From contig JAEBUN010000021.1 of assembly GCA_023014365.1 (NCBI GenBank), positions 124,001 to 188,000 of the forward strand: 64,000 bases of DNA, written 5' to 3'. Below, piece by piece: positions 47,021-63,607 of this stretch. The notes under the pieces were generated by a model. The model had not been told where the DNA came from. It made no database searches and saw nothing but the letters and a program-made list of their open reading frames with translations. Every line of letters begins with the position of its first letter. The stretch's first letter is position 1. The stretch comes from Lepiota brunneoincarnata (taxonomy: Eukaryota > Basidiomycota > Agaricomycetes > Agaricales > Agaricaceae). The translations under genes and the position numbers were made by a program.

Positions 47021-48322
47021 TGATACGCCGATTTCACGCCTATACATGAATTCCGTACTCCGGAACGATTCTCTACATAGAATCATTGGCTATATCATTA
47101 AAGAACTCTATAGAGGATTGGTACTATATCCCGTAGTAGCCAGTTCGACCGAACTGAAGATATTCGAGCCTCGGAAGTGTTCAAACCAGCTCATTATCAC
47201 TAAGCTTAGTGAACCAAGCTATCAGAACGCTCTCCGGAGGGATTCAGGACTCTACATAGCCTATCGAGTATACCCCGGTCGCATCCAGGGACCTTACGAG
47301 CAGTTTTCTGATGAACCCAAATGCGTTTGAACATAAAAGAATGTACCTAGCGGCTGTCGCAGGCGTATTACGTCTATAGCGAGTTCAATAATGATGACCG
47401 GACCACGGAACGGAACGTCCAACGTTCGGGAGGCAATACCCGATGCCCAAAACCCTAGAAACATCAAAGACTCCTAATTAACGAGTGCTTTGTGGGTCCC
47501 GGCACTTCGGCATTCTGCTTAACTGAGATTAATTACAACGGATCAAGGGATTGTCCATCCGCTATACATTCCGATCATAATTGATCCGGAAACTTAACGC
47601 ACTCGCGTGGACGCAGAATAATGCAGCCGAGCACGGAGCATGTCTGGCTGGATTGCCATTCGTTAATCAGAGAAAAACCCATAACCCAGGGTGAGGTAGA
47701 AATGCTGCCGAACCTTCCAAAATGTTCTACAGTGCCTGTAACAATTAAGCTTATTGTTTTCTATTTCATATTTACTATCTCTCGTATGTATCAAAACAAT
47801 ATAAATACGGTCGCACTTGTTCGTGGAGAAGAAAGAGGTCTCACCCCCGCTTCCACACGCAAGTCTGCGAGCCGTGATCAAGAACGGTTTCAGAGGGCTA
47901 TTTAGTGTGCGTCGTTAAGTGTGATTTCTTCGGTCGTTGACCAACCCAGGGACAGAGACAGAGACCAGAGTTCAGAGTTTAGAGTTCCAGAGTGCTAGAG
48001 ACAGAGACAGAGACAGAGACCAGAGTTCAGAGACCAGAGACCAGAGAACAGAGACCCAGCGCTTTGAATTGACAGGGATTGTCCTTTCATTGTTGCACCG
48101 TACGGCTAAGATAACTTCAACGGCTGTTCGTTAACCTCTAAAAAACACTACTCTCTTGAATTTCGCTGTCAGAACGCACCCCCAGAACACCCTAAAAGAC
48201 GAAACTGTTCATTATCTATCTCATTCCACTTGTATTAGCTTAAGCTTATCGAATAGCGGCTAAGCTTAGTGAAAACAAGCCCCTTATCTATATTAAAACC
48301 TAAGAAAGTTTCTACCTTTTCA
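47021..48322 (+). repeat. 5' LTR
   Basis: Direct copy of 59692-60993. Contains four TAAGCTTA octamers, a TATAAATA box and a purine-rich AGAGAC/CAGAGTTC array (47950-48058). Confidence 0.95.
47800..47807 (+). promoter_or_regulatory. LTR TATA box
   Basis: TATAAATA, duplicated in the 3' LTR at 60471-60478. The likely start of the genomic RNA is some 30 bp downstream. Confidence 0.55.
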
Positions 48323-50370
48323 TCTGGAGCCCACCGCGAGGGGGGTTTTCAGTTGAATTTCACGAGCCAAACACCAAAAAGACTTGGACACTGGCCCGCC
48401 TTTCACCTGCGAAGCAGAAAAAGGTTCAAGCAAAGACCGTAAAGTCACCCAAAACGTCCTTCGAGAACAGTCTCAGGAAGGTCGACCCCCCAAAACAGAG
48501 AACTACTCGGAATTCCAATCGTCCAGAAGGTTCTGAAGGCCTCATCGCCGCTAGTACCTCTCGAAAGCGAAAAGATCCCGTTAACTCTCTAGCTGCGAAC
48601 ACAGCGAGTGGTTCAGCAGTTGCAGTATCGAGAGAAGTCGCACCGCCGACCTCTACTGCTCCCAGAATTACACTAAGGCTTCCAGCCTCAGCTCGCAACA
48701 TAGCGCATATTCTGCGCACCGAAAGCCAGGACGGCCAGACCGTTCCTACGCTAAGCTTAGCGGTTACAAACCAAAACTCGTTTCATACGAACCCTCCTGG
48801 TGCCTCTACGGTACCACAGATATCACAGTCAACTCCGACTGTACAGACAAACCAAACTACGCCGTCTACGACGACTACAGCTAGAAAAATGGGACACGAG
48901 CGTATGCCAATTCCCTTTAGCAATAATGCTCCCAGATGGGATGCATCAAAACCACAGACATTGAGAAATTATCTCTGGACGCTTGATTGGCTCTTCACGA
49001 TAACGAAGACGACGGACGATGCAGAAAGGATAAATTGGGCAGTGTCATATGTGGACCAGGATATCCGTGAAGAGTGGATGAGTTTTGCGGAGTTCCCAGC
49101 AGGAAGCTGGACAGGCTTCGTAGAGAGATTGAAGAAAGAGTATCCCGAGACTGTGGCAGCCGAGCAGGGCTCAGTGCGACGATTGAGGGAACTCTGCACA
49201 GAGAGTAGAGGCATTGCAATGAATGAGGAGCATAGAGTCTTAGACTTCAAAAGGCGATTCATCCTAGAAGCAGAGAAGTGCCTGAAGTCGCCGGCGGTAG
49301 TCTCGAACCGAGAGCTAGTCGAGTTATTTACGAGCGCACTGGACTCCGTGTTCCAGGACGTACTCAATGCGAGATTAGCGATCACCGGGGCGCGTAGAAC
49401 CGCGAGCGATGGGTCGGCACTAACTGCGAAGGATTTACGCGAAGAGGACCCCTATGATTGGAGGATCGTCGTGGATAAAGCCGTCGAAATTTCGATTGGC
49501 AAAACACTTATGCGATCCCTTCATCAGGATTCAAGGCCGGTGAACTCGGCATCAATGAGCCATCCACCTGCGACGTCCGGAACAGGGACTTATGACCCTG
49601 TAGTAAAGCGAGAGCTGCAAAGCTTAAAACAGAAGTTTCAGGATGAAGTCTCGCAGATGGCAGGCGGTCTCGCTGAGCTTAAGGACCTCATGAACATCCA
49701 GGGGCATACCTTAAAATCATACTTAGAGAGTTTGGCGAAAGAAGGACATAATCATGCCGGTTATAATCACGCTCAGAGGAATACCGGAAGTGGGTCGGCA
49801 GGGTCGCTTTCCGATCGCAAGTGTTTCTACTGCTGGTTATTAGGGCATAGTTGGTTATTCTGCCCGGACATGGAGGCGGATAAACAAGCTGGCCGAATTA
49901 GAGTCGAAGGGAACAAAATATATATGGGAGATGGCTCGAGTATCCCTCGAGGAGAAGGGCCTATTAAAGAGAAAGTGGCAAAGTACTATGCGACAAAGGG
50001 ACAACTCTTCGTTCAGATACCAGAACTGCCGGAGGTTGAGCCTGAGTTACCGCAAGTGCCAACGTCAGCGGTGTTTGCACAGAGAGCGTTCCCGAGGTCA
50101 GAAAACCAAAGGTCACCAGCGGAAGAAGAAGTCCGCCGTCTGAAGCAGCGCATGGAAATGTTAGAGACAGTTGCCATCCACGCCGGGAGTGCCCCAAAGG
50201 TTAAGCTTATGACCAGAAAGGATGATAATGTCGAGATACAGTCTTTGGCCGAGCAATTGGCCCAGATACAGGCTAAGCTTAGTGGTTTGACGGATGGTAC
50301 GCCCTCGGCAAGCCAGTATTTGGACACCAGGAGTGGCGCGAAGACTTGGAACTCGGAGTCGGGTTTCTAA
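48304..50370 (+). CDS. gag: Gag polyprotein of the Gypsy element
   Basis: The frame is open from 48304 to a TAA at 50370, but the first ATG is at 48889 (493 residues from there). The 195 codons before the ATG are stop-free, Ser/Thr/Lys-rich and may be translated from a spliced leader (an acceptor TTTTCAG ends at 48352) or from a non-AUG start. The capsid-like part (PRWDASKPQTLRNYLWTLDW) is followed by a zinc knuckle C-X2-C-X4-H-X4-C (CFYCWLLGHSWLFC) at about residue 312. It forms the capsid and binds RNA. It ends on a -1 slippery heptamer abutting the stop. Confidence 0.85.
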   Translation, partial: ESFYLFIWSPPRGGFSVEFHEPNTKKTWTLARLSPAKQKKVQAKTVKSPKTSFENSLRKVDPPKQRTTRNSNRPEGSEGLIAASTSRKRKDPVNSLAANTASGSAVAVSREVAPPTSTAPRITLRLPASARNIAHILRTESQDGQTVPTLSLAVTNQNSFHTNPPGASTVPQISQSTPTVQTNQTTPSTTTTARKMGHERMPIPFSNNAPRWDASKPQTLRNYLWTLDWLFTITKTTDDAERINWAVSYVDQDIREEWMSFAEFPAGSWTGFVERLKKEYPETVAAEQGSVRRLRELCTESRGIAMNEEHRVLDFKRRFILEAEKCLKSPAVVSNRELVELFTSALDSVFQDVLNARLAITGARRTASDGSALTAKDLREEDPYDWRIVVDKAVEISIGKTLMRSLHQDSRPVNSASMSHPPATSGTGTYDPVVKRELQSLKQKFQDEVSQMAGGLAELKDLMNIQGHTLKSYLESLAKEGHNHAGYNHAQRNTGSGSAGSLSDRKCFYCWLLGHSWLFCPDMEADKQAGRIRVEGNKIYMGDGSSIPRGEGPIKEKVAKYYATKGQLFVQIPELPEVEPELPQVPTSAVFAQRAFPRSENQRSPAEEEVRRLKQRMEMLETVAIHAGSAPKVKLMTRKDDNVEIQSLAEQLAQIQAKLSGLTDGTPSASQYLDTRSGAKTWNSESGF
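48325..48341 (+). promoter_or_regulatory. Primer-binding site
   Basis: TGGAGCCCACCGCGAGG begins two bases after the LTR end with the TGG expected to pair with a tRNA CCA tail. I did not identify the tRNA. Confidence 0.6.
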
Positions 50371-51479
50371 AGGGTTCGAGGAAGGAGCCGGCTCTGAAGA
50401 AGAAGGTCGCCTTCGCCAGAGGACAGACTCCTGAGGACGCGTCGGATTCCGAGCGATCAGAAGAATCAGAAAATGAGGAAATAGGGCAGACAACGGAGAA
50501 ACCAATGCATGCCACAGCAGGAGAATTACCATATAGAAATGTGAAACCACTGCGCCCGGTCGTTGAGGTACCACCACTACCTGTCAGAAGGATGGAACCA
50601 TCCAAGAAGGAGCCTGCGTATAAGCACCAGGCCCCTATAGAGAGGAATGTCGATGTTGAGGAAGTACTTAGCAGGGTATTGAAGCGAGAAGCCTCAGTAT
50701 CGCATGGAGAACTCTTGGCCTTGTCACCGATATACAGGAATGCTTATAGAGAGCGCATTATGAGAAAACGGGTACCCACGAGTCAAAGCTTAATAGCAGG
50801 AGTAGGGCCCGGGGACGATAATACAGAAGATATAGAGATTAATAGTGGGCCAGTACAAGTCATGATAACGGAGTTGGCAGATGGCTCTCGGAAGTATGAT
50901 ACGGTGCTCCGAGAAGGCTCGGCAACCCAAGCCTGGGTAGCTCAGGATCCAATCATGCAGTACTTGGAGTCACTGCCCCGAAGAGACAGGGGACGGCAAG
51001 TGTTTATTGCGAAAGAATGCGAGTCGTTGAGAGTAGTGCCAACTCTGATAAATGGGATTCGGCAGGAAGAGGCCTTGCTAGATAGCGGGTCACAGATCGT
51101 CTCCATGAGTCAGGAAGCGGCGATTGCATGTCAAGTTTCTTGGGACCCAGATACTACGATAAATTTGCAGAGTGCGAATGGGCAGGTTGAAAAGACTTGT
51201 GGATTGGCAAAGAACGTAGGCTTTACCTGCGGGGGAGTCACAATCTATTTGCAAGTTCACATCGTTCGTAGCCCCGCGTATCGAGTACTCCTGGGACGAC
51301 CCTTTGATGTAATGACGGCTAGCGAAGTCAGGAATAGCGCCAGTGGCGAGCAAACCTTGGTTATTACGGACCCAAATACCAGAGAAAGGGCTGTGTTACC
51401 AACTTATGCTCGAGGAGAGTGTAATCCTCCTAAGCTTAGGGAAAACAGTCAAAATTTTCAAGAAACCTCAATAAGTTGA
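50346..51479 (+). CDS. pro: Protease region of the Gypsy element
   Basis: Open in the -1 frame relative to gag; the ORF has no ATG at its start, consistent with frameshift expression. The aspartic protease active site ALLDSGSQIVSM is at about residue 246, followed by a hydrophobic YRVLLGRPF block typical of retropepsins. The N-terminal half is low-complexity and charged. It ends at 51479, seven codons after a second slippery heptamer. It would cleave the polyprotein. Confidence 0.82.
   Translation: MELGVGFLKGSRKEPALKKKVAFARGQTPEDASDSERSEESENEEIGQTTEKPMHATAGELPYRNVKPLRPVVEVPPLPVRRMEPSKKEPAYKHQAPIERNVDVEEVLSRVLKREASVSHGELLALSPIYRNAYRERIMRKRVPTSQSLIAGVGPGDDNTEDIEINSGPVQVMITELADGSRKYDTVLREGSATQAWVAQDPIMQYLESLPRRDRGRQVFIAKECESLRVVPTLINGIRQEEALLDSGSQIVSMSQEAAIACQVSWDPDTTINLQSANGQVEKTCGLAKNVGFTCGGVTIYLQVHIVRSPAYRVLLGRPFDVMTASEVRNSASGEQTLVITDPNTRERAVLPTYARGECNPPKLRENSQNFQETSIS
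50361..50367 (+). promoter_or_regulatory. -1 frameshift heptamer 1 (gag to protease)
   Basis: G GGT TTC in the gag frame, immediately followed by the gag TAA. It fits the X XXY YYZ rule, and the protease ORF is in the -1 frame. Confidence 0.65.
51452..51458 (+). promoter_or_regulatory. -1 frameshift heptamer 2 (protease to pol)
   Basis: A AAT TTT in the protease frame. Shifting -1 enters the RT frame, which is open through here and has no ATG at its beginning. Confidence 0.65.
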
Positions 51480-53440
51480 CTGAGGGACAAGGAGAGGTGG
51501 CTTGTATAATAGACTATGATGATGAGAAGGGCCCTGTCGTCGCACAAACACTAAGCTTAGCAAAAGGAAGCTTCTCAGAGGCCGAGCTACAGCTAATGTT
51601 CATTGACCGAGTCATATGCGATGAGGACTGCCCACAGGAAGATAAAGCAACGGCGTTATTGTGCCTGGGACGCATAGCCAACGCGCAGGGCACAGAGGAC
51701 CAGGGAATAACTGTCTTCGAAACAGAAGAAGATGACAAAGATACGGTACAATGCCTGGCTGGGAAGAAATATAAACCAGTAGCCTTAAAAGTGAGGCCAG
51801 TGTTGGGTGATCTACCGGAGAGATTCAGGATAAAACGAGAAATAAAAGGGGACCCACTGGCAGAAATGCCTGAGCTTAGCGTGCATCCTCCAGAGTTTGT
51901 CCCGACAGGCAGATATACGGAGGAGCGTAAGCTTAAGCTGGACGAAGCCCATGCAGGGGATTTCTTGTGGCCAGAGGAAAGAAAGCTGATGCACCACATC
52001 ATGATGCTTCAAGAAAAGGCATTCGCCTGGACAGATGAGGAAAAGGGATGTTTTAGGGAAGATTTCTTCCCGCCGATCGAGATACCGACGGTAGAACATA
52101 CTCTGTGGGTTGAGAAACCCATTCCGATTCCACCAGCGATCTATGATGAAGTTTGTGCCATTATAAAGAGAAAGATTAGTGCTGGTGTATACGAGCCGTC
52201 GAACTCATCCTATAGATCCAGATGGTTCTGTGTGGTGAAGAAAGATGGGAAAAGTTTGAGACTGGTACACAGCTTGGAACTGCTGAACAAAGTGACGATA
52301 GCGCATTCAGGACTGCCGCCAGCAACGGAAGATTTGGCAATGCACTTCGCAGGCAGAGCTTGCGGAGGCATTCTGGATCTATATGTTGGCTATGACGAAC
52401 GACTGTTAGCTGAGTCGTCTCGGGACTTAACAACGTTCCAGACGCCTTTTGGAGCGCTACACTTAGTGACGTTACCCATGGGATGGACCAATTCAGTGCC
52501 TATATTTCATGAGGATGTAACAGCGATCCTAACCAGTGAGATACCAGAATACACGATGCCGTACATAGATGATGTACCTATCAGAGGACCCAAAACCAGA
52601 TATGAGTTGCCAGATGGCACGGAAGAGACGCTGAAAGAAAACCCAGGGATCCGACGATTTGTATGGGAACACATGCAGACGGTCAATAGGATTCTACAGA
52701 GGATGAAATACGTAGGAGGAACCTTCTCTGGGCCCAAGACGACTATCTGCGCTGATGAAATCACCGTAGTGGGTTTTGAATGCTCTTATAAAGGACGGTT
52801 GCCTGCCACAGACACCATTGGGAAGATATTAAGATGGGGGGATTGCGAGAATGTCTCCGAGCTAAGGGGTTTTCTAGGAACAGCTACGCGCTGCAGGAAT
52901 CATATCCCGAAGTTCATAGCCATTGCTGCACCTCTATACGAAAAGCTTAAGAAAGGGCAAGAGTTTGAATGGGGAGAAAATGAACGGAAAGCACAGCAGG
53001 AGCTGAAAGATGCGATTCAACACTGTTTCCTGACCAGGAACCCTGAATTCCCGAGTAAACAACCCATAGTAGTAGCCGTGGATACCTCATGGAGGGCGGT
53101 GGGATACTACATATATCAGCGAGATGGAGAAGACGCTAAGCTTATACATTATGCGAAGTTTGGGTCAATATTGTTGGACGAGAGACAGCAGAGGTATTCT
53201 CAGCCCAAGCGAGAGCTATGCGGCTTAAGAATGGTGCTGGAACAGGAGAAATATTTGTTGTGGGGATCGAGAAATCTAGTAGTGGAAACAGACGCGAAGT
53301 TTCTCTTTGGGATGTTAAACAACCCAGGAAAACTCCCGAACGCTACTGTAAACCGTTGGGTGGACTTCATTAGATCGTTCCACTTCACGCTAGTACACAA
53401 AGAAGGAAAGACATTTGGGCCGGATGGACTGTCCAGATGA
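51459..53440 (+). CDS. pol: Reverse transcriptase and RNase H
   Basis: Entered by -1 frameshift near 51458. RT motifs: RSRWFCVVKKDGKSLRLVHS, TLPMGWTNSVPIFHEDV and the catalytic YIDDV at about residue 363 of the frame. The thumb (LRGFLGTATRCRNHI) is followed by RNase H (VVAVDTSWRAVGYYIY, then a second acidic residue in LVVETDAKF). It ends LVHKEGKTFGPDGLSR and a TGA at 53438-53440. The same frame remains open beyond into integrase, so the stop is either read through (TGA followed by C is a leaky context) or a new mutation. Confidence 0.9.
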
Positions 53441-55225
53441 CGTTACTATCCCGGTGATGAGACAGCCCGTCGTTTCGACGACGGATCCGAGGACGAGGGA
53501 GAGGAGTTCGAGTTGATCAAAGGAGATCCGGGGGCTGCAGATCCGTTACCCTTGGAAGCCTTCTGTGATGAGATCGACAGTCGCTCTGGCTTCTACCAGG
53601 GTCTGGCGCGTGATGTGTATGATTTTGAGTATGAGCTGGATCAAGCTCGGGAAGAGTACTTGGATGAACAACAGGCTAAGCTTAGGGTTATAGAAGACCC
53701 AGCGTGCCCAGAAAACCACCGACAAGTACTAAGCTTAATGACGGATGTCAGGCTAGTGCCAGATTTCGAAGAGGAAAAGTTGACCGAGATAGAGGAAGCG
53801 TATGATGAATCGCGTAGGACAGATACAGCGCGAATACAAGACGGAAGAATACCCAAAGTCAGGGAATACCTGAAAACAGGGGGCAGTAGCGCAGCTGAAG
53901 GCTTGGATGAGCCGGATCTGCGTAAGCTTAAGCATATGGTGGAGCATTTCTTCTTGGACGAAGAGGGGAGACTGTATAGGATGAGCCCTAGCGGTCAGCA
54001 TCAGCTAGTAGTGGATAAGGAGCAACGTATGTATATGTTGCGAGCCAGCCACGACTTCCTAGGACACAGGGGAATATACGCAACCACTAAGCTTATAACG
54101 CAGAGGTTCTGGTGGCCGGAAGTTGAAGGAGACGTAACTTGGTATGTGCAATCGTGCCATCTATGCCAGCAACGACAAAAGGCGATCATCGAGACGCCGC
54201 CAATAGTAACGCCCACGCCGTCGATATTCCAAGTGCTACATGTGGACACACTACATATGACGCCAAGTTCTAATGGGTGTAGTTATATTGTGCATGGAAG
54301 GTGTGGACTGTCGTCCTGGATGGAGGCAAAAGCTTTGAGAAAAGAGAATGCTAGTTCGATTGCGCAGTGGTTATTTGAAGATATCATTTGCAGATGGGGC
54401 TGTATAGTGAAGATTGTCACGGACAACGGTTCTCCATTTAAGAAAGCTGTTCGATGGCTGGAAGAAAAATATGGGATAAAAGGAGTAACGATATCTCCTT
54501 ACAATTCCAAAGCGAACGGGATTATTGAAAGAGCCCACTGGGATGTGCGGCAAATGTTGTACAAAGCTACAGATGGAGATGTCAAAAAGTGGTATTGGCA
54601 CCTACCGCACGTTATGTGGGCAGATCGGATAACCATTAGAAAAGGAATGGGGTGTTCCCCGTACTTTCTGGTAACCGGAGCACACCCGACGCTACCTCTG
54701 GATGTCAAAGAGGCCACTTGGCTAGTACAACTACCAAATAAGTACTTAACCACGGCCGAGTTGATAGGCTACCGAGCTCAGGCTTTGGCAAAACATGTTT
54801 GGCATGTTGAGGAGGTGCGTCAGCGTGTTTCAGACACTAAGCTTAGCAAGGCTTGGGAGATGGAACGACAAGCAGCGCATAAGATAAAAGATTATCGCTT
54901 CGGCCCGGGAGATTTAGTATTAGTGAGAAACACAGCTATAGAGAGCTCAGCAGACAGGAAGATGAAACCCAGGTATCTAGGACCCATGGTGGTCATATCT
55001 AGATCGAAGGGAGGATCATATATCCTGGCAGAGTTGGATGGCTCTGTATGGCAGAATAAAGTGGCGGCGTTCAGAGTAATTCCCTACTTAGCCAGAAAAC
55101 ATATGCCGTTGCCGCTGGAGTTACAAGAGTTGTTAGATCTGTCGCCAGAGGGACTGAAGACCCTGGAGGAGACTACTGAGGATGAGCCTAGTGACAGATG
55201 GGAGCCAGAAGAGTTGGAGGGATAG
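53441..55225 (+). CDS. pol: Integrase
   Basis: Same frame as RT after the TGA; first ATG at 53513. The zinc-binding HHCC domain (HDFLGHRG, then CHLCQQRQK) precedes the DDE core: [12 protein letters not shown] and [10 protein letters not shown], with 34 residues between the second D and the E. A GPY/F-type C-terminal module follows ([20 protein letters not shown]). No chromodomain was recognised. It inserts the cDNA. The stop at 55225 lies 76 bp from the stop of antisense gene A, so the two genes meet tail to tail. Confidence 0.9.
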
Positions 55226-55301
55226 AAAAAACCTGATATTGTGGACAGAACTATCTACTTATCGAAGGAAAACTATCCTGGGGACTGTAAAAGCGTTAAG
55301 C

Positions 55302-56648
55302 TTAAGCGGGGGAGGACTTGTCCAAGTCGGAAAGGTTGCGCAAAAGGCTTTTGAGACGGATGCGCTCTTGAATGAGGAATTGGAACCTTTTTAAGTTGGC
55401 TTCGAGCGAGGGAATAGCATCGATGAAGTCCCGGCTGAGCGAATTGAGGTCGCATTTGACTGACCGAGCGTCGTCACCGCGAGATTCGGATTCGTACTTG
55501 TCGCGAGAGTGAGACAGGAGGTTTTGGAGTTCCTGGAGCAAACGAGCTGCCCGGGAGAAGTGTCAGTACCGTTAAGCTTAGCGAAGAGAAGTGAGAAATT
55601 GCCCACCAGATAAGCCCGCAAAGGTGCGCTCATCGGAAGCAGACTCGGTACGGGCGCGCTTGGCAGTATTGGCGCTGGCTTTGGCTAGAACCTGTTCAGC
55701 CCGGACATAACAGCAGTGTTTAGTGTTCATATTGGGAACTTGACAATAGGAAAGAAGACGGACGGTGCCTTTAGACGATGAGGACTTTTTGACGGTCTCC
55801 TAAAGAGGGAGGAAGTCAGAATCAGTGGTTGGGGGGAGTGGAGCTGGCGCACCACGTCGGAGGTAGACAAACGACGCTTGCGATAAGGCGAGACTACACG
55901 AACCTCTTCGACGATAGCTTGAGAGACCTCCTCATCGACCATCATGTCCTGGAGGCGAGCGATTATCTCAGCCAATGTAATAGGTTGAGAAGCAGCTATA
56001 TTACCGTGTCAGCACCAGTTGCTCGGGAGTTGGAAGCACTGGGCATACTCTCAGCAAGCTCGGTATCGGTGTCTACCACAACAGCAGCAGAGACAGGGGC
56101 CTTGCGACCTTTGCGAGGCTAAGCTTATACATGAGGAGACGATTGGAGCCAAAAGAACGCTAAGCTTACGCGTTTGGGGACAGCAGAGCCTTCGGCAACG
56201 TTGGAGGAAGTAGAGCCAGTCGTGGACGATGGGTTCTGAGCCTCTTCGGTCCTGGATTTGTGGGATTCTTCGGAACGAACGCGATTAATGCGGCTACAGC
56301 ATTCAGAGAGCGCCTTATAGATCGCGGGCATCTCATAAGACGAATGGTAGTTGTTTTGGTAAATTTCGTAGAGCTTGCGGATACGGAAGACGTAGTCCTG
56401 GTTGACATGAAGCTTGATAGCCTCATTATCCTCCGATAACGCTTCAATATAAGCAGACTAGAAATGATTTGGAAACGGCGAGAGAAGCATGGAAAGAGTA
56501 GACATACCCCAGGGGCGTCGAACGCAAGGAGAGCCTTCTCGACGAGGGGACGAGCGACTTGGCCATTTTGCAGGTGCTGAAGACGACCTTTGGCGTTGCT
56601 GATGAGATCGTCAAGCTCGACCTGGAGATGGGGGATAGAAGAAGCCAT
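55302..56648 (-). CDS. Antisense gene A: nuclear-type protein of unknown function
   Basis: Six exons: 56648-56508, 56457-56170, 56118-56049, 55995-55853, 55799-55607 and 55546-55302. They total 1080 nt (359 residues), every phase consistent, with introns of 50-60 nt. Visible features: an amphipathic N-terminus (HLQVELDDLISNAKGRLQHL), a lysine/arginine-rich PKRPRKGRK, PYRKRR (possible nuclear signals) and a leucine-rich C-terminal coiled coil (LEANLKRFQFLIQERIRLKS). No known family recognised. Intron 2 starts and ends within TAAGCTTA octamers; another octamer supplies the stop codon. A TATAAAAG lies 45-52 bp upstream. Introns persist because the element's genomic RNA is the opposite strand. 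Confidence 0.75.
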
Positions 56649-56692
56649 TTTCTTGCGAAGGGTGTCTGCTAGAATGAGGCGTCGCTCCCTCA

Positions 56693-56700
56693 CTTTTATA
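56693..56700 (-). promoter_or_regulatory. TATA box of antisense gene A
   Basis: TATAAAAG on the minus strand, 45-52 bp before the ATG at 56648. Confidence 0.55.
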
Positions 56701-56922
56701 AGAAAAGGCCGTAGGCAGTGATGACGAATCATAACGAGTGGATGAAGAGCACCCTCCACCCTAAGCTTATGACCTGAGGGGCCTAGGAAACCTGTAATCT
56801 TGAGTAGCCAGCCTTCGACAGACTTGCTGAACCACAGTTGCCTTATTAGGTAACATGTCGCCAGGGTCTCGCGGTTATCAGTGTGCACAGGGATTCTGAT
56901 GGAACGGTGAGGGCACCGATTT

Positions 56923-56943
56923 CAATTTGGCTAGGGGGAGATG
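56923..56943 (+). promoter_or_regulatory. Internal (central) polypurine tract copy
   Basis: A 21-base block matching the terminal PPT region (59673-59693) with one mismatch (GCTAG versus GTTAG), including TAGGGGGAGATG. It lies between antisense genes A and B. Confidence 0.6.
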
Positions 56944-57333
56944 GGTCCCAAGGGGCGCTTCAGTTTGACAGTTTGACGCGAGCTTTTTCGCGAGGAGCTT
57001 TTTCGAACAGCGTGGACAGGCTGGTTCGGGCTTGTAAGTAAACCGGAGCGGATGAGCCGGGTCACTACGCGTTGCGGGTCACGGCGCGCTGAGATGTCAA
57101 TAAACATCACTGATAGATCAGAGAGGCATATAATGAGTATATAAGTGACTGGCAACCTAAACTAGCTTAGGAGTCTCCCAGGAGGTCTTTAGCTTAGCTT
57201 TAGGAGATGACAAGAAAGTCAAAAACAGTTTAGCTTAACTCAGTAGGAGACAAGGAACAACAAGATGACTATTGGGATGTATATACATGACAAGATTATA
57301 TACTACATCCAAGAAGTAAACTAGGCGCAGAGA
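56944..57333. other. Spacer between antisense genes
   Basis: The 3' flank of gene B and distal 5' flank of gene A. Contains several TTTAGCTTA/CTAGCTTA variants of the element octamer (57158-57240). Confidence 0.5.
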
Positions 57334-59364
57334 TCACTCAAGGTCTTCTAGAACAGACTCCGGATCCTGAGTCATCGGGAAAGCGAGGAAGAGAAGCGAT
57401 TTGAGCTCCTCGAATTCCTCGTATGTCGGGACCCCCGGAAAGTTGTTGGCGAACTCAAAGAACGCCCGAACGTCTTCAAGGGAGTCGGCCATACCCATCT
57501 CTACAAAAGCCACGTCGTTACCGTCCAAGGCAGTCCTGGTAGCTTGCATCTCCTGGACGAATTGATAAACTACACGGCGGTGGTGAAACGCCGAAGCCTC
57601 GTAAGCGACGCGGTTCGCCTCCAGGCTGACCAAGCTAGAGGACACAACACGCGCGAACGCAGCCAGATCTAGAAAAATAAAGAGAATAAGAAAAGGGAAA
57701 AATAGTGAACAGAGAAACTTACGGTATTCACTGGTCAGTGAGGATGTGACCAGGGCGTTCGCAACGCCGGCCGAAACCCGGGGATGGTCCGCGAAGGTAC
57801 AAGGGTAGTTGTACAAGTCGCAGCTGCGACACTTCTTACTCTTGCCCAGAGGCTCGCACTCCAACTTACGAGCAGCGCAAGAAGGACACCGAGACCGAGG
57901 TGGCACGTACTGGAGCAGATGTCAAAGCCGTCAGTAAGGAACCACGAGAAAACTTGGAGAACGTACCGAAAGCTGGCTAGCTGCCAGCAGCCTAGGAAAG
58001 TCCTCACAAAAGAGCGGGACTGGGTGCCGGTATCCATGGTCCCGAATAATTTCGGCCTCAGAGCGCCGAACGCGAGCCCGGGGAACGTATTTCTTCGTCC
58101 GCGTGTTGGAACTCTTCTTGGACAAAAGGACGCATTGTTGACGCAACGGGCCAGCATGAGGGGACTCTTGAGGGATCTCCGGAACCACCGGGCTAGGCAA
58201 ACGAGAAAGGACGGGGGTCGGAGAAGCTAAGAACGCGTCTTGAAAAACAAAAGTCGGTTCTTGAGGGGCAGGCGAAGGCTCCAGAAGGAGCTCCAAATCT
58301 GGAGAAGGAGAAATCTCCACGGCGCTTGCGGGAGACACGACTGGAGCGCCAGCTAAGTGAGGTGGTGATGGTGTTGGGCACCTAGGCGAAGCCAGCACCT
58401 GTTGCCCATCCAGAGAAGAGGACCAGCTAAAGATTTTGAAGAGGTCGGCTTGAGAGATCTCAGGGACTGGAGAACGCGATGACGAGTTAGAACCCGCCAG
58501 GAATAAGGGGAGAGGGGGCGGCGTCGATGATTTCGCCCTCTGTTTGCCTTTAAAGGCAGCTGGTATACGCGCTAAAGCAGAAGTCAGCGGAAAGAACAAA
58601 TATATCGTAAAAAACGACTAAGCTTACGCGTTGAAGTAGCAGAAGAGAGTACGGGGGAAGAAGGCCGGTTTGTTGAAGGGCCCGGCACCTCCGAACCTGA
58701 TGCAATACCCAAGGGAGGGAGCACCAGCGAGTCTTCCTCGTCCAGGGTGCGCAGAGAGACGGCGAGAGGGGGCAGCGACATTGAACTGGACGAAGCCTCT
58801 GTGGATAATCCACCAGAGGGCCCGCCAACGGGGATACCTGACGAGGGTTCTGCGGAAAATCCGGCAGAGCGCTCGTCGGTTGGATTGCACAACGACGCGA
58901 TGGAAATCACGCGTCTTGGCACTGGAGCGTACAAAGGAGAGGCCGGCGGAGGAGTTGGTTCGCGGGGCGGAGAGTATGGTGGAGGAGGGGTCCTTGCCAC
59001 ACCCACCTGACGATTTCCGCGAGCTCCTCGAGCTCCTCGCCCTCCTCTAGCCCTCCTAGTACGCGGTGCTGGTGGTTCCCATTGAGGTAGGAGGTTGCGA
59101 CGTGCCGGGAGGCGAATAGTGAGACCTAAAAGTAGAGAAAACATAAGTAAAGACAACGAGAACAGGGGAAAACGCGACTTACGTTGCGCGATCGATGATG
59201 AAGGTGTGCCTTGGGAAGCCGTTGAGGCGTTGCTCGGCCCAGGGTAGCCTGAAAACAGTGTTAAGAAAACAGACAAAACTGTAACTCGAACTCTACTTAC
59301 TGGAAGAAGAGTCCGAGTCCTCCTCGTAGCGAGCACGTTTGCTGCTGCGCGTGTTTCTGTCCAT
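57334..59364 (-). CDS. Antisense gene B: Zn2Cys6 (Gal4-type) zinc-cluster protein
   Basis: Six exons: 59364-59301, 59248-59183, 59125-58628, 58571-57967, 57909-57723 and 57668-57334. They total 1755 nt (584 residues) with all phases consistent. The N-terminus has a basic nuclear-type signal (RSSKRAR) and an acidic Ser stretch. A long Gly-Arg- and Pro/Ser-rich region follows, then, at about residues 417-445, CPSCAARKLEC and CRSCDLYNYPC: C-X2-C-X6-C-X8-C-X2-C-X6-C, exactly the fungal binuclear zinc cluster. The C-terminal segment is helical and acidic. Zn2Cys6 proteins are fungal DNA-binding regulators, usually with the cluster near the N-terminus, so its late position is odd. The exon 3 donor is an octamer (GTAAGCTTA). 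Target unknown. Confidence 0.82.
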
Positions 59365-59682
59365 TGTTGATAGAAGTGAGCGTTGAAAAGTGAATATGCG
59401 AGCACAATAGACAAGTAAGAAGTGAGAGGGAGAACGAAGGAGATGAAACGAGACCTTGGGACATTTAAAAGACCCAATAAAGAGATAAAAATTTAAGCTA
59501 TAGCAACAAGAAGTTGATCTATACATTTAAACTCGGTGACATGACATCATTCTGAAATAAGCTTAGCGAAAGTGCGCTACCCTCAAAGCTGGTGAACGTT
59601 CTAGACCATAGAGCGCGTCAGAGAGACTCAGATACTGCAAATTTGAAGGAGATAATGACTGAGGACAGTCAGCAATTTGGTT

Positions 59683-59691
59683 AGGGGGAGA
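59683..59691 (+). promoter_or_regulatory. Polypurine tract
   Basis: AGGGGGAGA directly before the 3' LTR; primes plus-strand DNA synthesis. Confidence 0.7.
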
Positions 59692-60993
59692 TGATACGCC
59701 GATTTCACGCCTATACATGAATTCCGTACTCCGGAACGATTCTCTACATAGAATCATTGGCTATATCATTAAAGAACTCTATAGAGGATTGGTACTATAT
59801 CCCGTAGTAGCCAGTTCGACCGAACTGAAGATATTCGAGCCTCGGAAGTGTTCAAACCAGCTCATTATCACTAAGCTTAGTGAACCAAGCTATCAGAACG
59901 CTCTCCAGAGGGATTCAGGACTCTACATAGCCTATCGAGTATACCCCGGTCGCATCCAGGGACCTTACGAGCAGTTTTCTGATGAACCCGAATGCGTTTG
60001 AACATAAAAGAATGTACCTAGCGGCTGTCGCAGGCGTATTACGTCTATAGCGAGTTCAATAATGATGACCGGACCACGGAACGGAACGTCCAACGTTCGG
60101 GAGGCAATACCCGATGCCCAAAACCCTAGAAACATCAAAGACTCCTAATTAACGAGTGCTTTGTGGGTCCCGGCACTTCGGCATTCTGCTTAACTGAGAT
60201 TAATTACAACGGATCAAGGGATTGTCCATCCGCTATACATTCCGATCATAATTGATCCGGAAACTTAACGCGCTCGCGTGGACGCAGAATAATGCAGCCG
60301 AGCACGGAGCACGTCTGGCTGGATTGCCATTCGTTAATCAGAGAAAAACCCATAACCCAGGGTGAGGTAGAAATGCTGCCGAACCTTCCAAAATGTTCTA
60401 CAGTGCCTGTAACAATTAAGCTTATTGTTTTCTATTTCATATTTACTATCTCTCGTATGTATCAAAACAATATAAATACGGTCGCACTTGTTCGTGGAGA
60501 AGAAAGAGGTCTCACCCCCGCTTCCACACGCAAGTCTGCGAGCCGTGATCAAGAACGGTTTCAGAGGGCTATTTAGTGTGCGTCGTTAAGTGTGATTTCT
60601 TCGGTCGTTGACCAACCCAGGGACAGAGACAGAGACCAGAGTTCAGAGTTTAGAGTTCCAGAGTGCTAGAGACAGAGACAGAGACAGAGACCAGAGTTCA
60701 GAGACCAGAGACCAGAGAACAGAGACCCAGCGCTTTGAATTGACAGGGATTGTCCTTTCATTGTTGCACCGTACGGCTAAGATAACTTCAACGGCTGTTC
60801 GTTAACCTCTAAAAAACACTACTCTCTTGAATTTCGCTGTCAGAACGCACCCCCAGAACACCCTAAAAGATGAAACTGTTCATTATCTATCTCATTCCAC
60901 TTGTATTAGCTTAAGCTTATCGAATAGCGGCTAAGCTTAGTGAAAACGAGCCCCTTATCTATATTAAAACCTAAGAAAGTTTCTACCTTTTCA
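59692..60993 (+). repeat. 3' LTR
   Basis: Same length as the 5' LTR. I found six substitutions by eye, all transitions. Confidence 0.95.
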
Positions 60994-63200
60994 CCGGGAT
61001 CCACTACTAAATCAATGATCTTGCGTGCAAGGCTGTACTTGTGGTTGGAGTCAGGCCCTGCGCCATAACTCCTGAAGAAACTGCAATTCCTCAGGAATTC
61101 GAGGGTGCTGTTAGATGGCCACGGGGTTTCGGGAGTGGTGGTGATAGAATACATCTCTCGGACATCCTGGAAGGCCCTTTCATAGTAAGTGGCCTTGTCA
61201 ACATTAGGGGGGCAGACAATGACAAGGGTGGCATGTTCTTGATAGCCCAGCAAGATGTATGCCAATTGTGGGTGCCACAGGATGTTTTCTGCTATGTCGT
61301 AAGCATCTCTGTCGTTGAATTGATCCTTGAGAGAGTAGAAGATGAAGCTCCAATGGCATTGACAAAGAGAATACAAGTGAAATGGCTTCACGCTACGCCG
61401 CCCCCGAACCAGGAGAGTATAGTGTTCAAGTAGATGGTGATCTGTTGAAGATACCGGTGTGGTTCGGAAAATCCTGTCATTGTTTGGCCTCGCTGTCTCG
61501 GAATGCTGCAACTATTGTGAGTCAAGACGGGGTACTACTGGCCAAACGACGTACACAGTAACCTAGCCTATAGAATAGTGCGTCCAAAGAGACACGTGTG
61601 TTTGAGGACCCATCATGTCTACAAGGCAGATAGTTGAATGGGAACTGACATAGCTCGCTCCAAAATTCGGCTTTGTCAGCGTGATCAAACAAGCCACACC
61701 AACGCTGTAGGAGGCGGAAGAACACCCACTTGGTGATGAATCTATGCAATGAGTGAGATGGCCAAGGAACAATGTCTAACCAAAGCCAAGTGAGATTGAT
61801 GGATATGAGGGTTTCAAATGTATTTACCTGACAGGTCCTTGGTATCTTTTTTCTCCTTGAAAATCTTGAGCCATCTGACAAAATTCTTTCAAATGTCACG
61901 GATCGCATCTTCTTCCGTAAGGCCAAAGTCTCTATTTCTGTAAAATCTCTTTATGTAGTCATGAAAGGTTGCATGCTGGAATGAAACTGCCTCCTCTGAG
62001 GCCTTGGCAGGAAGTGGAATATTCAGGACGGAGCGAAGTCTCTGGAGGCTTGCATAGAATGTGGAGGGTTCAAGAAAGAAGAAGTTGGCAATAGTTTGCG
62101 CGGGTGGAAACTTGTCAAGCAGAACAGGGATGGATAGAATGCGAAGCACAGTGAGAAGGAAGTTCCGAGGTACATTATCGAGTATTCCATGATACAGAAC
62201 CTCAAGGGGGTCAAACGGGTTTCCATCCTCTCCAGTCAGTTTCCCCTGCAGAAACTCGAGACATTTGTCAAGCTGAATTATAGGGTCTTCGTCATCAATA
62301 AACCACAATAAAATGGTAGCAAACTGCATGTGCCCCGACGTGGCAGAGTTGATTGCCAGGAACTGTGCCTTTGTTGGCCATTCAATGCCTTCTATGAACA
62401 TGTCACTATACTTGTCACGAATGGCCTGGAAGCCATGTCGGAGTACGACTGAGACATCCTTGCAGCCTTCCTGGGTATTGAGAGGGAGTTCCTTGCACCA
62501 TATTTTGATTGTGGGATCGAGCTTGTCAAATGACGATATAATCAGCCATTCTGGGTGGCTGACAACGATCCAGACAAAGGGAAGGCCTCGGGCCTTTAAT
62601 GCAGAGGCAAAGGGTGCGATGATGTGAATGAACTCCTGCTGGGCCTCGTCTGTGCAACATTTGTCAAGACCGTCCAAGAGGATGAGTATTGGGGGCTGAA
62701 CACCATTTGGGGCATGGATTATGAAAGTATGAGAGAGTTCGTCAATCAGTCGCCGGAATTGAATGGGTGGTGATTTTTCCAAAATTGTATGATCTGCATT
62801 GAGGAGTGAGGCAACAGCCCAACGATATGTGGGATTTGTGAGTGCCAGTTGGTGAATGAGAGATGGAATGATGCGATTGGGATCATCACATTTATTGGCT
62901 CTCAACAAAAAGAGTGCCGCTCCAAGCCAGCCTTTCATACCGCAAAGCTCTGCAATGCTCTGCGCAACTGTGGATTTACTGACCCCTGCTGAGCCCCAGA
63001 GCCACCGCAACGATTGTTCTTGATCCATGTCTAGAAGCCATGCCATGATCTTTGCTCTCAGCTGCACATACGTTTCAGGGTGACAGAAGGGAGCATGGTG
63101 ATGACAAGCCAAAGAATCAAATGTTCCTTCCACAATGGCTTTCTTTTCAAGGAGTCTCATTGCTGTTGTGTGTTGATCAGTCATGAACCTTTGCTCCAAA
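60994..63200 (-). pseudogene. 5' part of a NACHT NTPase (NLR-like) gene, interrupted by the Gypsy element
   Basis: Main exon about 63200-61900, then smaller exons to the element edge at 60994. The NACHT domain has a P-loop WLWGSAGVSKSTVAQSIAE, with Ser in place of the usual second Gly of GxGKS/T. The Walker B is ILILLDGLDKC, and SHPEWLI and FQHATFHDYI blocks follow, as in agaricomycete NACHT proteins. Exact splicing between 61890 and 61560 is uncertain. The frame at 60994 (IIDLVVDPG) continues directly in the fragment at 47016, so the gene was probably intact before insertion. The N-terminal effector domain was not found. Fungal NACHT proteins act in self/non-self recognition and cell death. 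Confidence 0.78.
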
Positions 63201-63229
63201 CTACATGGATAAGGTACCGTTAGACTGTT

Positions 63230-63607
63230 ATGAACAGTCTGGACCAAGAGGAACAAGAGCAATTATTCAACTTTACAAGATGGGTACAGGAAACCACAGA
63301 CCAGTTGCAAGCACAGGAATATGAAGACGAAGAAGGGGAATATTACAATGCCATGCAGGACTTGGCAAGAGAAGCAGGAATGGAGATAACTCTGGAGGAT
63401 ATTCTGGAATACCCCAAGGATGAAGAAGATAGCCATGGATCAACCAATCCAACCTCTGATACGGATGGAAGCACCAAGAGAATGGAGAGCGAGAATGGAA
63501 GAGAATCCATGGAGATAGAATTGGGAGAAGAGAATTATAAGTCAGAGGAAAGTGATGGAACATTGCACAGCAGTGGAATGGAGAATGAGAACACTGACTC
63601 ATTGTAA
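63230..63607 (+). CDS. Acidic hypothetical ORF, divergent from the NACHT gene
   Basis: 125 residues from an ATG at 63230, very rich in Glu/Asp (YEDEEGEYYNAMQDLAREAG, EITLEDILEYP). It starts 30 bp from the NACHT exon start on the other strand. It may be a C-terminal piece of a transposase-like or hypothetical protein, or the opposite-strand shadow of the missing NACHT N-terminus. No family recognised. Confidence 0.35.
   Translation: MNSLDQEEQEQLFNFTRWVQETTDQLQAQEYEDEEGEYYNAMQDLAREAGMEITLEDILEYPKDEEDSHGSTNPTSDTDGSTKRMESENGRESMEIELGEENYKSEESDGTLHSSGMENENTDSL

What the first reader, a model, noticed from the sequence alone, without database searches (positions are those of the whole stretch)
47201..60939. 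A palindromic octamer, TAAGCTTA, is spread through the whole retrotransposon
At least 27 exact copies in 14 kb against about 0.2 expected, and only one seen in the other 50 kb. It is not a codon effect: in coding DNA it falls in different frames (AAG-CTT as Lys-Leu; CTA-AGC-TTA as Leu-Ser-Leu), and it also lies in LTRs, spacers and antisense introns. That points to selection on DNA or RNA sequence itself. Plausible roles: binding site for an element-encoded protein (compare VANDAL transposons of Arabidopsis, whose VANC proteins bind short motifs dispersed in their own DNA to relieve silencing), an insulator-like array, or an RNA packaging or splicing signal.
Basis: partly seen in the sequence, partly recalled or inferred. 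Interest (0 to 1): 0.92.

Follow-up and report, generated by a model that had tools for sequence, protein, structure and literature searches.

The report
Octamer array in a fungal retrotransposon
A mobile DNA element in a fungus carries the same 8-letter palindrome about every 500 letters along its whole length, even inside its genes, and natural selection keeps those letters almost unchanged, probably so that a DNA-binding protein, perhaps the element's own, can recognise it.

Summary
TAAGCTTA occurs 27 times (23 distinct positions; the LTRs double four) in a young Ty3/gypsy-type LTR retrotransposon at 47021-60993, and once in the other 50 kb. Codon-preserving shuffles of the four sense ORFs give a mean of 0.08 and a maximum of 2, against 11 observed. 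In five relatives (86-92% identical) motif bases differ at 5 of 616, against 8.7% in composition-matched octamers. Synonymous third positions changed in 1 of 129 inside motifs, against 679 of 6231 outside. The constraint stops at the 8-bp edge. In 28 other LTR copies 0 of 896 motif bases changed. So selection acts on the octamer itself. A sister family (65-71% identical) and two further gypsy copies of one other lineage lack the array. The element carries two antisense genes; one has a weak Zn(2)-Cys(6) DNA-binding signature. A site lies 27-89 bp upstream of a TATA-like box of each inferred promoter (post hoc). Best reading: binding sites for a sequence-specific protein, most likely the element's own, for self-activation or anti-silencing. 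Binding itself is untested.

The parts
47021..48322 (+). 5' LTR (TGATACG...TTTTCA; ends set by eye), followed at 48323 by the presumed primer binding site
   Evidence: 6 mismatches to the 3' LTR over the 1284 bp compared; CCGG on both outer flanks (by eye)
59692..60993 (+). 3' LTR
47201..47208 (.). TAAGCTTA, 5' LTR
   Evidence: kept in 28 of 28 other LTR copies
47746..47753 (.). TAAGCTTA, 5' LTR, upstream of TATAAA at 47800
   Evidence: kept in 28 of 28
48241..48248 (.). TAAGCTTA, 5' LTR
   Evidence: pair also present in the diverged LTR of L040
48261..48268 (.). TAAGCTTA, 5' LTR
48752..48759 (.). TAAGCTTA, leader
50202..50209 (.). TAAGCTTA in gag ORF (Lys-Leu)
50274..50281 (.). TAAGCTTA in gag ORF (Lys-Leu)
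51431..51438 (.). TAAGCTTA in protease ORF (Lys-Leu)
51552..51559 (.). TAAGCTTA in RT ORF (Leu-Ser-Leu)
51928..51935 (.). TAAGCTTA in RT ORF (Lys-Leu); Leu where 11 of 12 aligned homologues have Glu or Asp
53137..53144 (.). TAAGCTTA in RNase H part of the ORF (Lys-Leu)
53677..53684 (.). TAAGCTTA in integrase ORF; intact in 96 of 100 listed genome copies (143 found)
53730..53737 (.). TAAGCTTA in integrase ORF (Leu-Ser-Leu)
53923..53930 (.). TAAGCTTA in integrase ORF
54088..54095 (.). TAAGCTTA in integrase ORF
54838..54845 (.). TAAGCTTA in integrase ORF; intact in 99 of 100 listed genome copies (131 found)
55297..55304 (.). TAAGCTTA next to the end of antisense gene B
   Evidence: by eye
55573..55580 (.). 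TAAGCTTA in the gene B region
56120..56127 (.). TAAGCTTA at the inferred acceptor end of a gene B intron
   Evidence: intron by eye
56161..56168 (.). TAAGCTTA at the inferred donor end of the same intron
   Evidence: by eye
56762..56769 (.). TAAGCTTA upstream of TATAAA (56700, minus strand) of gene B
58619..58626 (.). TAAGCTTA at an inferred intron donor of gene A
   Evidence: by eye
59558..59565 (.). TAAGCTTA upstream of gene A (TTTAAA at 59469 or 59531, minus strand)
59872..59879 (.). TAAGCTTA, 3' LTR
60417..60424 (.). TAAGCTTA, 3' LTR
60912..60919 (.). TAAGCTTA, 3' LTR
60932..60939 (.). TAAGCTTA, 3' LTR
48889..50370 (+). gag-like ORF by position (493 aa; no Pfam hit)
50346..51479 (+). aspartyl protease ORF
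   Evidence: PF13975
51476..53440 (+). RT-RNase H ORF (pol is one longer frame in many other copies; here it is interrupted by a stop)
   Evidence: PF17917, PF17919
53513..55225 (+). integrase ORF
   Evidence: PF17921
57334..59364 (-). antisense gene A, several exons (ends by eye); Zn2Cys6-like cluster encoded near 57780-57890; proposed binder
   Evidence: PF00172 E=0.008, below cut-off; dN/dS below 0.4 in 8 of 9 comparisons
55300..56648 (-). antisense gene B, several exons (by eye, approximate ends); no known domain in the ORF scanned
   Evidence: 30-35% identical stretches in the sister family

Best explanation
TAAGCTTA is the recognition site of a sequence-specific DNA-binding protein, and the element has accumulated and keeps about 23 of them along its full length. 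Shown here: the array exists, it is family-wide, and purifying selection maintains it at exactly 8 bp in coding, non-coding and LTR DNA. Also inferred: it binds the palindrome as a dimer, switches on the three promoters (a site lies some tens of bp upstream of a TATA-like box of each), and by coating the element body marks it as self and counters host silencing.
For: Enrichment beyond codon usage. Constraint: 72 of 77 site-copies intact, bases changed 5/616; non-CpG octamers of the same G+C changed at 2587/29576 (coding 754/17192 against 3/352 in coding motifs; non-coding 1833/12384 against 2/264); 0 of 20000 matched 19-site sets as low; synonymous changes 1/129 against 679/6231, p=1e-5. The edge is sharp: 81/931 changes in the 6 bp on either side. 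LTR motif bases 0/896 against 370/31694 other non-CpG bases. Family-wide: 195 of 200 listed copies intact at two coding sites. Family-specific: 79 copies in 50 kb of L034-L038 against 2 in 64.3 kb of eight other loci. At 51928 the window has Leu where 11 of 12 aligned homologues have Glu/Asp, and residues inside motifs match the sister at 7/22 against 1062/1884 overall (p=0.03): sites seem to have been gained at a protein cost. Sites precede TATA-like boxes of the LTR, gene B and gene A. Gene A: dN/dS 0.05-0.17 against L034; Zn cluster; the sister's cysteine cluster differs between its second and third cysteines and the sister has no array. CpG sites are heavily mutated in three of five copies, 29-44% transitions, as expected if the host methylates the family.
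Against: No binding, expression or methylation data. The Zn(2)-Cys(6) match is below Pfam's cut-off (16.8 against 21 bits); no PDB chain and no protein in the 5.8-billion database at E<=0.001 matches. L033 has a lone gene A homolog (43-62% identical stretches, similar cluster) with no TAAGCTTA in its 10 kb. The sister family has relatives of gene B and a weak one of gene A (E=7e-4) but no array, so these genes alone do not predict it; its cysteine cluster was found by pattern and eye, with no Zn_clus hit. One Zn-exon comparison (L036) gave dN/dS 2.3 on few changes. The TATA-like boxes were sought only around the three sites, after the fact, with no control. The five relatives share ancestry and were picked by me for divergence. 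The population control was only marginal (5/200 lost against 15/200, p=0.036).
Confidence: 0.5

Rival explanations
1. A host DNA-binding protein (transcription factor or architectural/insulator protein) reads the octamer; the element has accumulated host sites to gain expression or insulation, as Drosophila gypsy does with Su(Hw) (recalled).
For: Sites lie upstream of TATA-like boxes. The selection evidence fits any reader.
Against: Sites are spread over the coding body and not gathered in one block. The octamer is not enriched in the rest of the window (1 in 50 kb) or in the other element loci fetched.
Confidence: 0.22
2. An RNA-level role: the self-complementary octamer in the genomic RNA helps dimerisation, packaging or folding.
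For: Palindromes serve RNA dimerisation in retroelements (recalled). Most sites lie in the presumed transcript.
Against: Folding predicts the 19 internal octamers to be less unpaired than 150 controls (0.45 against 0.57, p=0.02). Flanks show no conserved stem. More than 20 copies far exceed what one dimer site needs, and a role in RNA does not predict the places upstream of antisense promoters.
Confidence: 0.1
3. A splicing signal: G|TAAGC donor and TTAG acceptor contained in the octamer.
For: Three sites sit on inferred antisense intron ends (by eye).
Against: Only 3 of 19 internal sites; 11 positions lie inside open gag-pol frames.
Confidence: 0.03
4. No function: a founder copy was rich in the octamer by chance or by a mutational process, and recent amplification copied it.
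For: The family is young (6 mismatches between the LTRs) and copies resemble each other. One-mismatch octamers are also somewhat denser in the element (0.70 per kb against 0.22 in window 1-46000).
Against: Constraint is measured against bases in the same copies: 0.8% against 8.7%, synonymous 1/129 against 679/6231. One-mismatch octamers are not conserved (35/224 bases changed). Sites present in relatives but not in the window (51871, 57189) differ by one substitution, so change is by point mutation.
Confidence: 0.05
5. The reader is element-encoded but acts as an autorepressor or copy-number control, not as an activator or anti-silencer.
For: The same anatomy: sites upstream of the inferred promoters.
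Against: Nothing direct. A dispersed array over coding DNA is less needed for promoter repression.
Confidence: 0.1

Closest known systems
VANDAL DNA transposons and their VANC anti-silencing proteins (Arabidopsis)
   Same: A transposon family with its own short motif in many copies; VANC21 binds YAGTATTAY in vivo and in vitro and causes loss of methylation (PMC5735166, passages; PMC10398659, abstract and outline only)
   Different: There: DNA transposon, plant, motifs in non-coding DNA and often tandem repeats. Here: LTR retrotransposon, fungus, 8-bp palindrome, single dispersed sites, 11 in codons; no binder proved
Plant Retand-type LTR retrotransposons with antisense TRP28 genes
   Same: Antisense genes between pol and 3' LTR with predicted DNA binding and unknown role (PMC11963269, passages)
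   Different: TRP28, not Zn2Cys6; tandem repeats in that region; the passages seen report no dispersed conserved octamer
Boty-like elements with antisense gene brtn (Botrytis)
   Same: Fungal LTR retrotransposon with an extra antisense gene (reference entry seen in PMC7264820; paper not read)
   Different: No motif array known to me; not compared here
Drosophila gypsy insulator (Su(Hw) sites)
   Same: Retrotransposon carrying an array of short protein sites (recalled; search listing only)
   Different: Sites clustered in one block and read by a host protein (recalled)

Membership tests
VANDAL/VANC system | Mutator-like DNA transposon | tested here: not met
   LTRs, RT-RNase H and integrase
VANDAL/VANC system | Family-specific short motif in many copies per element | tested here: met
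   27 against 0.23 expected; 2 in 64.3 kb of eight other loci
VANDAL/VANC system | Motifs in non-coding DNA and often in tandem repeats | tested here: not met
   11 of 23 positions in ORFs; gaps 20-1857 bp, scatter not different from even
VANDAL/VANC system | Element-encoded protein binds the motif and removes methylation | not testable with these tools
   needs EMSA/DAP-seq and methylome
Ty3/gypsy LTR retrotransposon | LTRs and protease-RT-RNaseH-integrase order | tested here: met
   gag by position only; RVT_1 itself below its cut-off, RNase H and integrase models above
Fungal Zn(2)-Cys(6) cluster protein (gene A) | CxxCx6C...CxxCx6C cluster above Pfam PF00172 cut-off | tested here: inconclusive
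   spacing present; 16.8 bits against a cut-off of 21, E=0.008; no PDB match
Drosophila gypsy-type insulator array | clustered sites of a host insulator protein | tested here: not met
   sites are dispersed over the whole element; reader unknown

The most novel reading that the evidence does not exclude
A fungal LTR retrotransposon encodes in antisense its own Zn2Cys6-type DNA-binding regulator and has written that protein's 8-bp palindromic site into its whole body, gag-pol codons included, at the cost of conserved amino acids: a self-recognition code for activation and escape from silencing, evolved independently of the plant VANDAL/VANC system and in another class of transposon.
Probability: 0.4. 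Interest if true: 0.93.

Novelty: new variant of a known kind. Interest (0 to 1): 0.82.

Why it matters
Selection for a DNA site that overrides synonymous freedom, and apparently conserved amino acids, along an entire retrotransposon is unusual. It would also show that sequence-specific self-recognition of the VANC type arose more than once. The octamer makes the question directly testable with one EMSA.

Tried and rejected
Codon effect: rejected. CpG-poor octamers simply escaping deamination: rejected, because controls without CpG (8.2%), or without CpG, CpA and TpG (10.2%), still diverge. RNA loop: not favoured. Extended palindrome: the next flank pairs match in only 9 of 23 sites, though C is preferred before TAAGCTTA (25 of 46 half-sites, 3' LTR left out). 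A second motif in the sister: GTTAACTA 6 times against 0.33 in L031, p=1e-6 before correction for about 32000 octamers; over a wider set of sister pieces the commonest octamers are A-rich words and no palindromic octamer passes 3 copies; left open. Gapped palindromes: none stood out in the sister, L033 or window 1-46000 (at most 4, 2 and 6 copies). Relatives outside this genome: none in viral contigs or genome contigs; gene A had no homolog at E<=0.001; RT had 1134 protein relatives (120 listed, 12 aligned) but no DNA context. Literature searches found no report of the array: (listings; for TAAGCTTA itself 23 papers, 15 titles seen). Structure prediction was not run: the relatives came from a tool that it does not list as a source.
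Full report
What it is. The stretch 47021-60993 is a young LTR retrotransposon of Ty3/gypsy type. Its two LTRs (1302 bp, ends set by eye) differ at 6 of the 1284 positions compared, with CCGG on both outer flanks (by eye). It carries a gag-like ORF, an aspartyl protease, RT-RNase H and integrase, and two spliced genes in antisense between pol and the 3' LTR (exon ends by eye). The window lies in an unnamed 55.6-Mb genome. Homologues of the RT include named proteins of Meripilus and Peniophora, so I take the host to be a basidiomycete fungus (inference).

There are 27 exact TAAGCTTA in the element and one in the other 50 kb; 100 dinucleotide shuffles of the window gave at most 4. It is the most significantly enriched octamer of the element (27 against 0.23). 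In the four sense ORFs there are 11, where 2000 codon-preserving shuffles gave a mean of 0.08 and a maximum of 2. The host genome holds 5370 copies against 842 for the reversed letters. Since the LTRs double four sites, 23 positions are independent.

Selection acts on the octamer. Five copies from the same genome (L034-L038; 86-92% identical over the aligned internal part, chosen by me for divergence of RT or antisense gene) were aligned to the window. Of 77 site-copies, 72 are intact; bases differ at 5 of 616. Octamers with the same G+C and no CpG differ at 2587 of 29576 (4.4% in coding, 14.8% in non-coding stretches), and none of 20000 matched sets of 19 was as low (mean 9.1%, lowest 1.0%). 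Divergence falls from 81 of 931 in the six flanking bases on either side to 0-3% per column inside the octamer. Coding and non-coding sites behave alike (3/352 and 2/264). Eight one-mismatch octamers are not conserved (35 of 224 bases). At third codon positions with unchanged first and second bases, synonymous changes are 1 of 129 inside octamers and 679 of 6231 outside (Fisher p=1e-5). In 28 other LTR copies (L003-L030; the window's own two dropped; the tool scored 40 of 697 candidates) all four LTR sites are intact, 0 of 896 bases changed against 370 of 31694 non-CpG bases elsewhere. A diverged LTR of about 424 bp (L040) carries the terminal pair. Two coding sites were read across the genome: 96 of 100 and 99 of 100 listed copies are intact (143 and 131 found). 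Nearest matched controls gave 90 and 95 of 100 (141 and 146 found). This last contrast is only marginal (p=0.036), partly because listed copies were those with the best flanks.

It is a family trait, with sites changing by point mutation. L034-L038 hold 79 octamers in 50 kb; eight loci of other kinds hold 2 in 64.3 kb. Those eight are the sister family L031, L032 (65-71% identical in pol where aligned) with its 3' parts L041, L042, the neighbouring stretch L039, the lone-gene locus L033, and two further gypsy copies, L043 and L044, which resemble each other and are best counted as one lineage. In L043 and L044 no relative of gene A was found apart from one stretch at E=0.03. Sites present in relatives but not in the window (51871, 57189) are one substitution away. 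Residues written by octamers match the sister at 7 of 22 positions against 1062 of 1884 overall (p=0.03; the gag alignment is poor). At 51928 the window has Leu where 11 of 12 homologues that I aligned (of 120 listed) have Glu or Asp. Thus the element seems to have paid in protein sequence for the DNA site.

Who reads it? Antisense gene A encodes CPSCAARKLECEPLGKSKKCRSCDLYNYPC, the spacing of a fungal Zn(2)-Cys(6) cluster. Pfam PF00172 matches at E=0.008, below its cut-off. Against L034, gene A exons give dN/dS of 0.05, 0.07 and 0.17. Against L036 they give 0.18, 2.3 (few changes) and 0.36, and against L037 0.07, 0.22 and 0.26. So the protein seems to be under selection. The sister has a frame with a cysteine cluster of quite different residues between the second and third cysteines (CSNCISVG.VTC; found by pattern; no Zn_clus hit) and no array. 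Zn(2)-Cys(6) proteins contact DNA with that stretch (recalled), and some bind sites such as GGCTAA (recalled for XlnR), which resembles the (G)CTAAG half-site here. A site lies 47 bp upstream of TATAAA in the LTR, 62 bp upstream of TATAAA of gene B, and 27 or 89 bp upstream of TTTAAA boxes of gene A; I looked only around these sites, so this is anatomy, not a test. Against this reading: L033 carries a gene A homolog with a similar cluster but no octamers in 10 kb, and the sister has relatives of gene B and, weakly, gene A without an array.

How it most likely works. Shown: an 8-bp palindrome maintained by selection throughout the element. Inferred with about 0.85 probability: a protein binds it as DNA. 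Inferred with about 0.6: that protein is element-encoded. About 0.5: it is gene A. The purpose would be activation of the three promoters and protection of the body from silencing. Three of the five copies show 29-44% transitions at CpG against 3-7% at other C/G and A/T sites, which points to host methylation or a similar process. The closest parallel is VANC in Arabidopsis VANDALs, but it is not a member of that family: element class, motif position and motif arrangement differ. RNA dimerisation and splicing do not explain the distribution.

Limits. All copies come from one genome and share ancestry. No DNA of relatives in other species could be reached. Binding, expression and methylation were not measurable.

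Noticed in passing
L036, L037, L038 against window 48323-59691: CpG sites carry 29-44% transitions against 3-7% at other sites: heavy methylation-type or RIP-like decay of these copies; L034 and L035 show only 8-9%.
   Followed up: partly
window 57337-58575 against L034: Antisense gene A has dS 0.32-0.79 against L034 while gag-pol has 0.10-0.22: the 3' part may have been exchanged between older lineages.
   Followed up: no
L033:2200-3900: A lone gene A homolog, no pol relative found by DNA comparison, inside a locally duplicated segment; a second such hit lies at C35:357779. Possible host progenitor, domesticated copy or fragment.
   Followed up: partly
L040:1436-1858 (copy at C9): This copy's LTR is only about 424 bp and aligns to the 3' part of the window LTR alone, yet carries the TAAGCTTA pair.
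   Followed up: no
L031: GTTAACTA 6 times against 0.33 expected in the sister family; weak after correction, could be a different, smaller array.
   Followed up: partly
window 47950-48055 and 60621-60726: Purine-rich CAGAGA-type repeat downstream of the TATA box in both LTRs.
   Followed up: no
window 61889-63262 (-): ORF of 457 aa that looks like a NACHT-type ATPase (by eye), next to the element.
   Followed up: no
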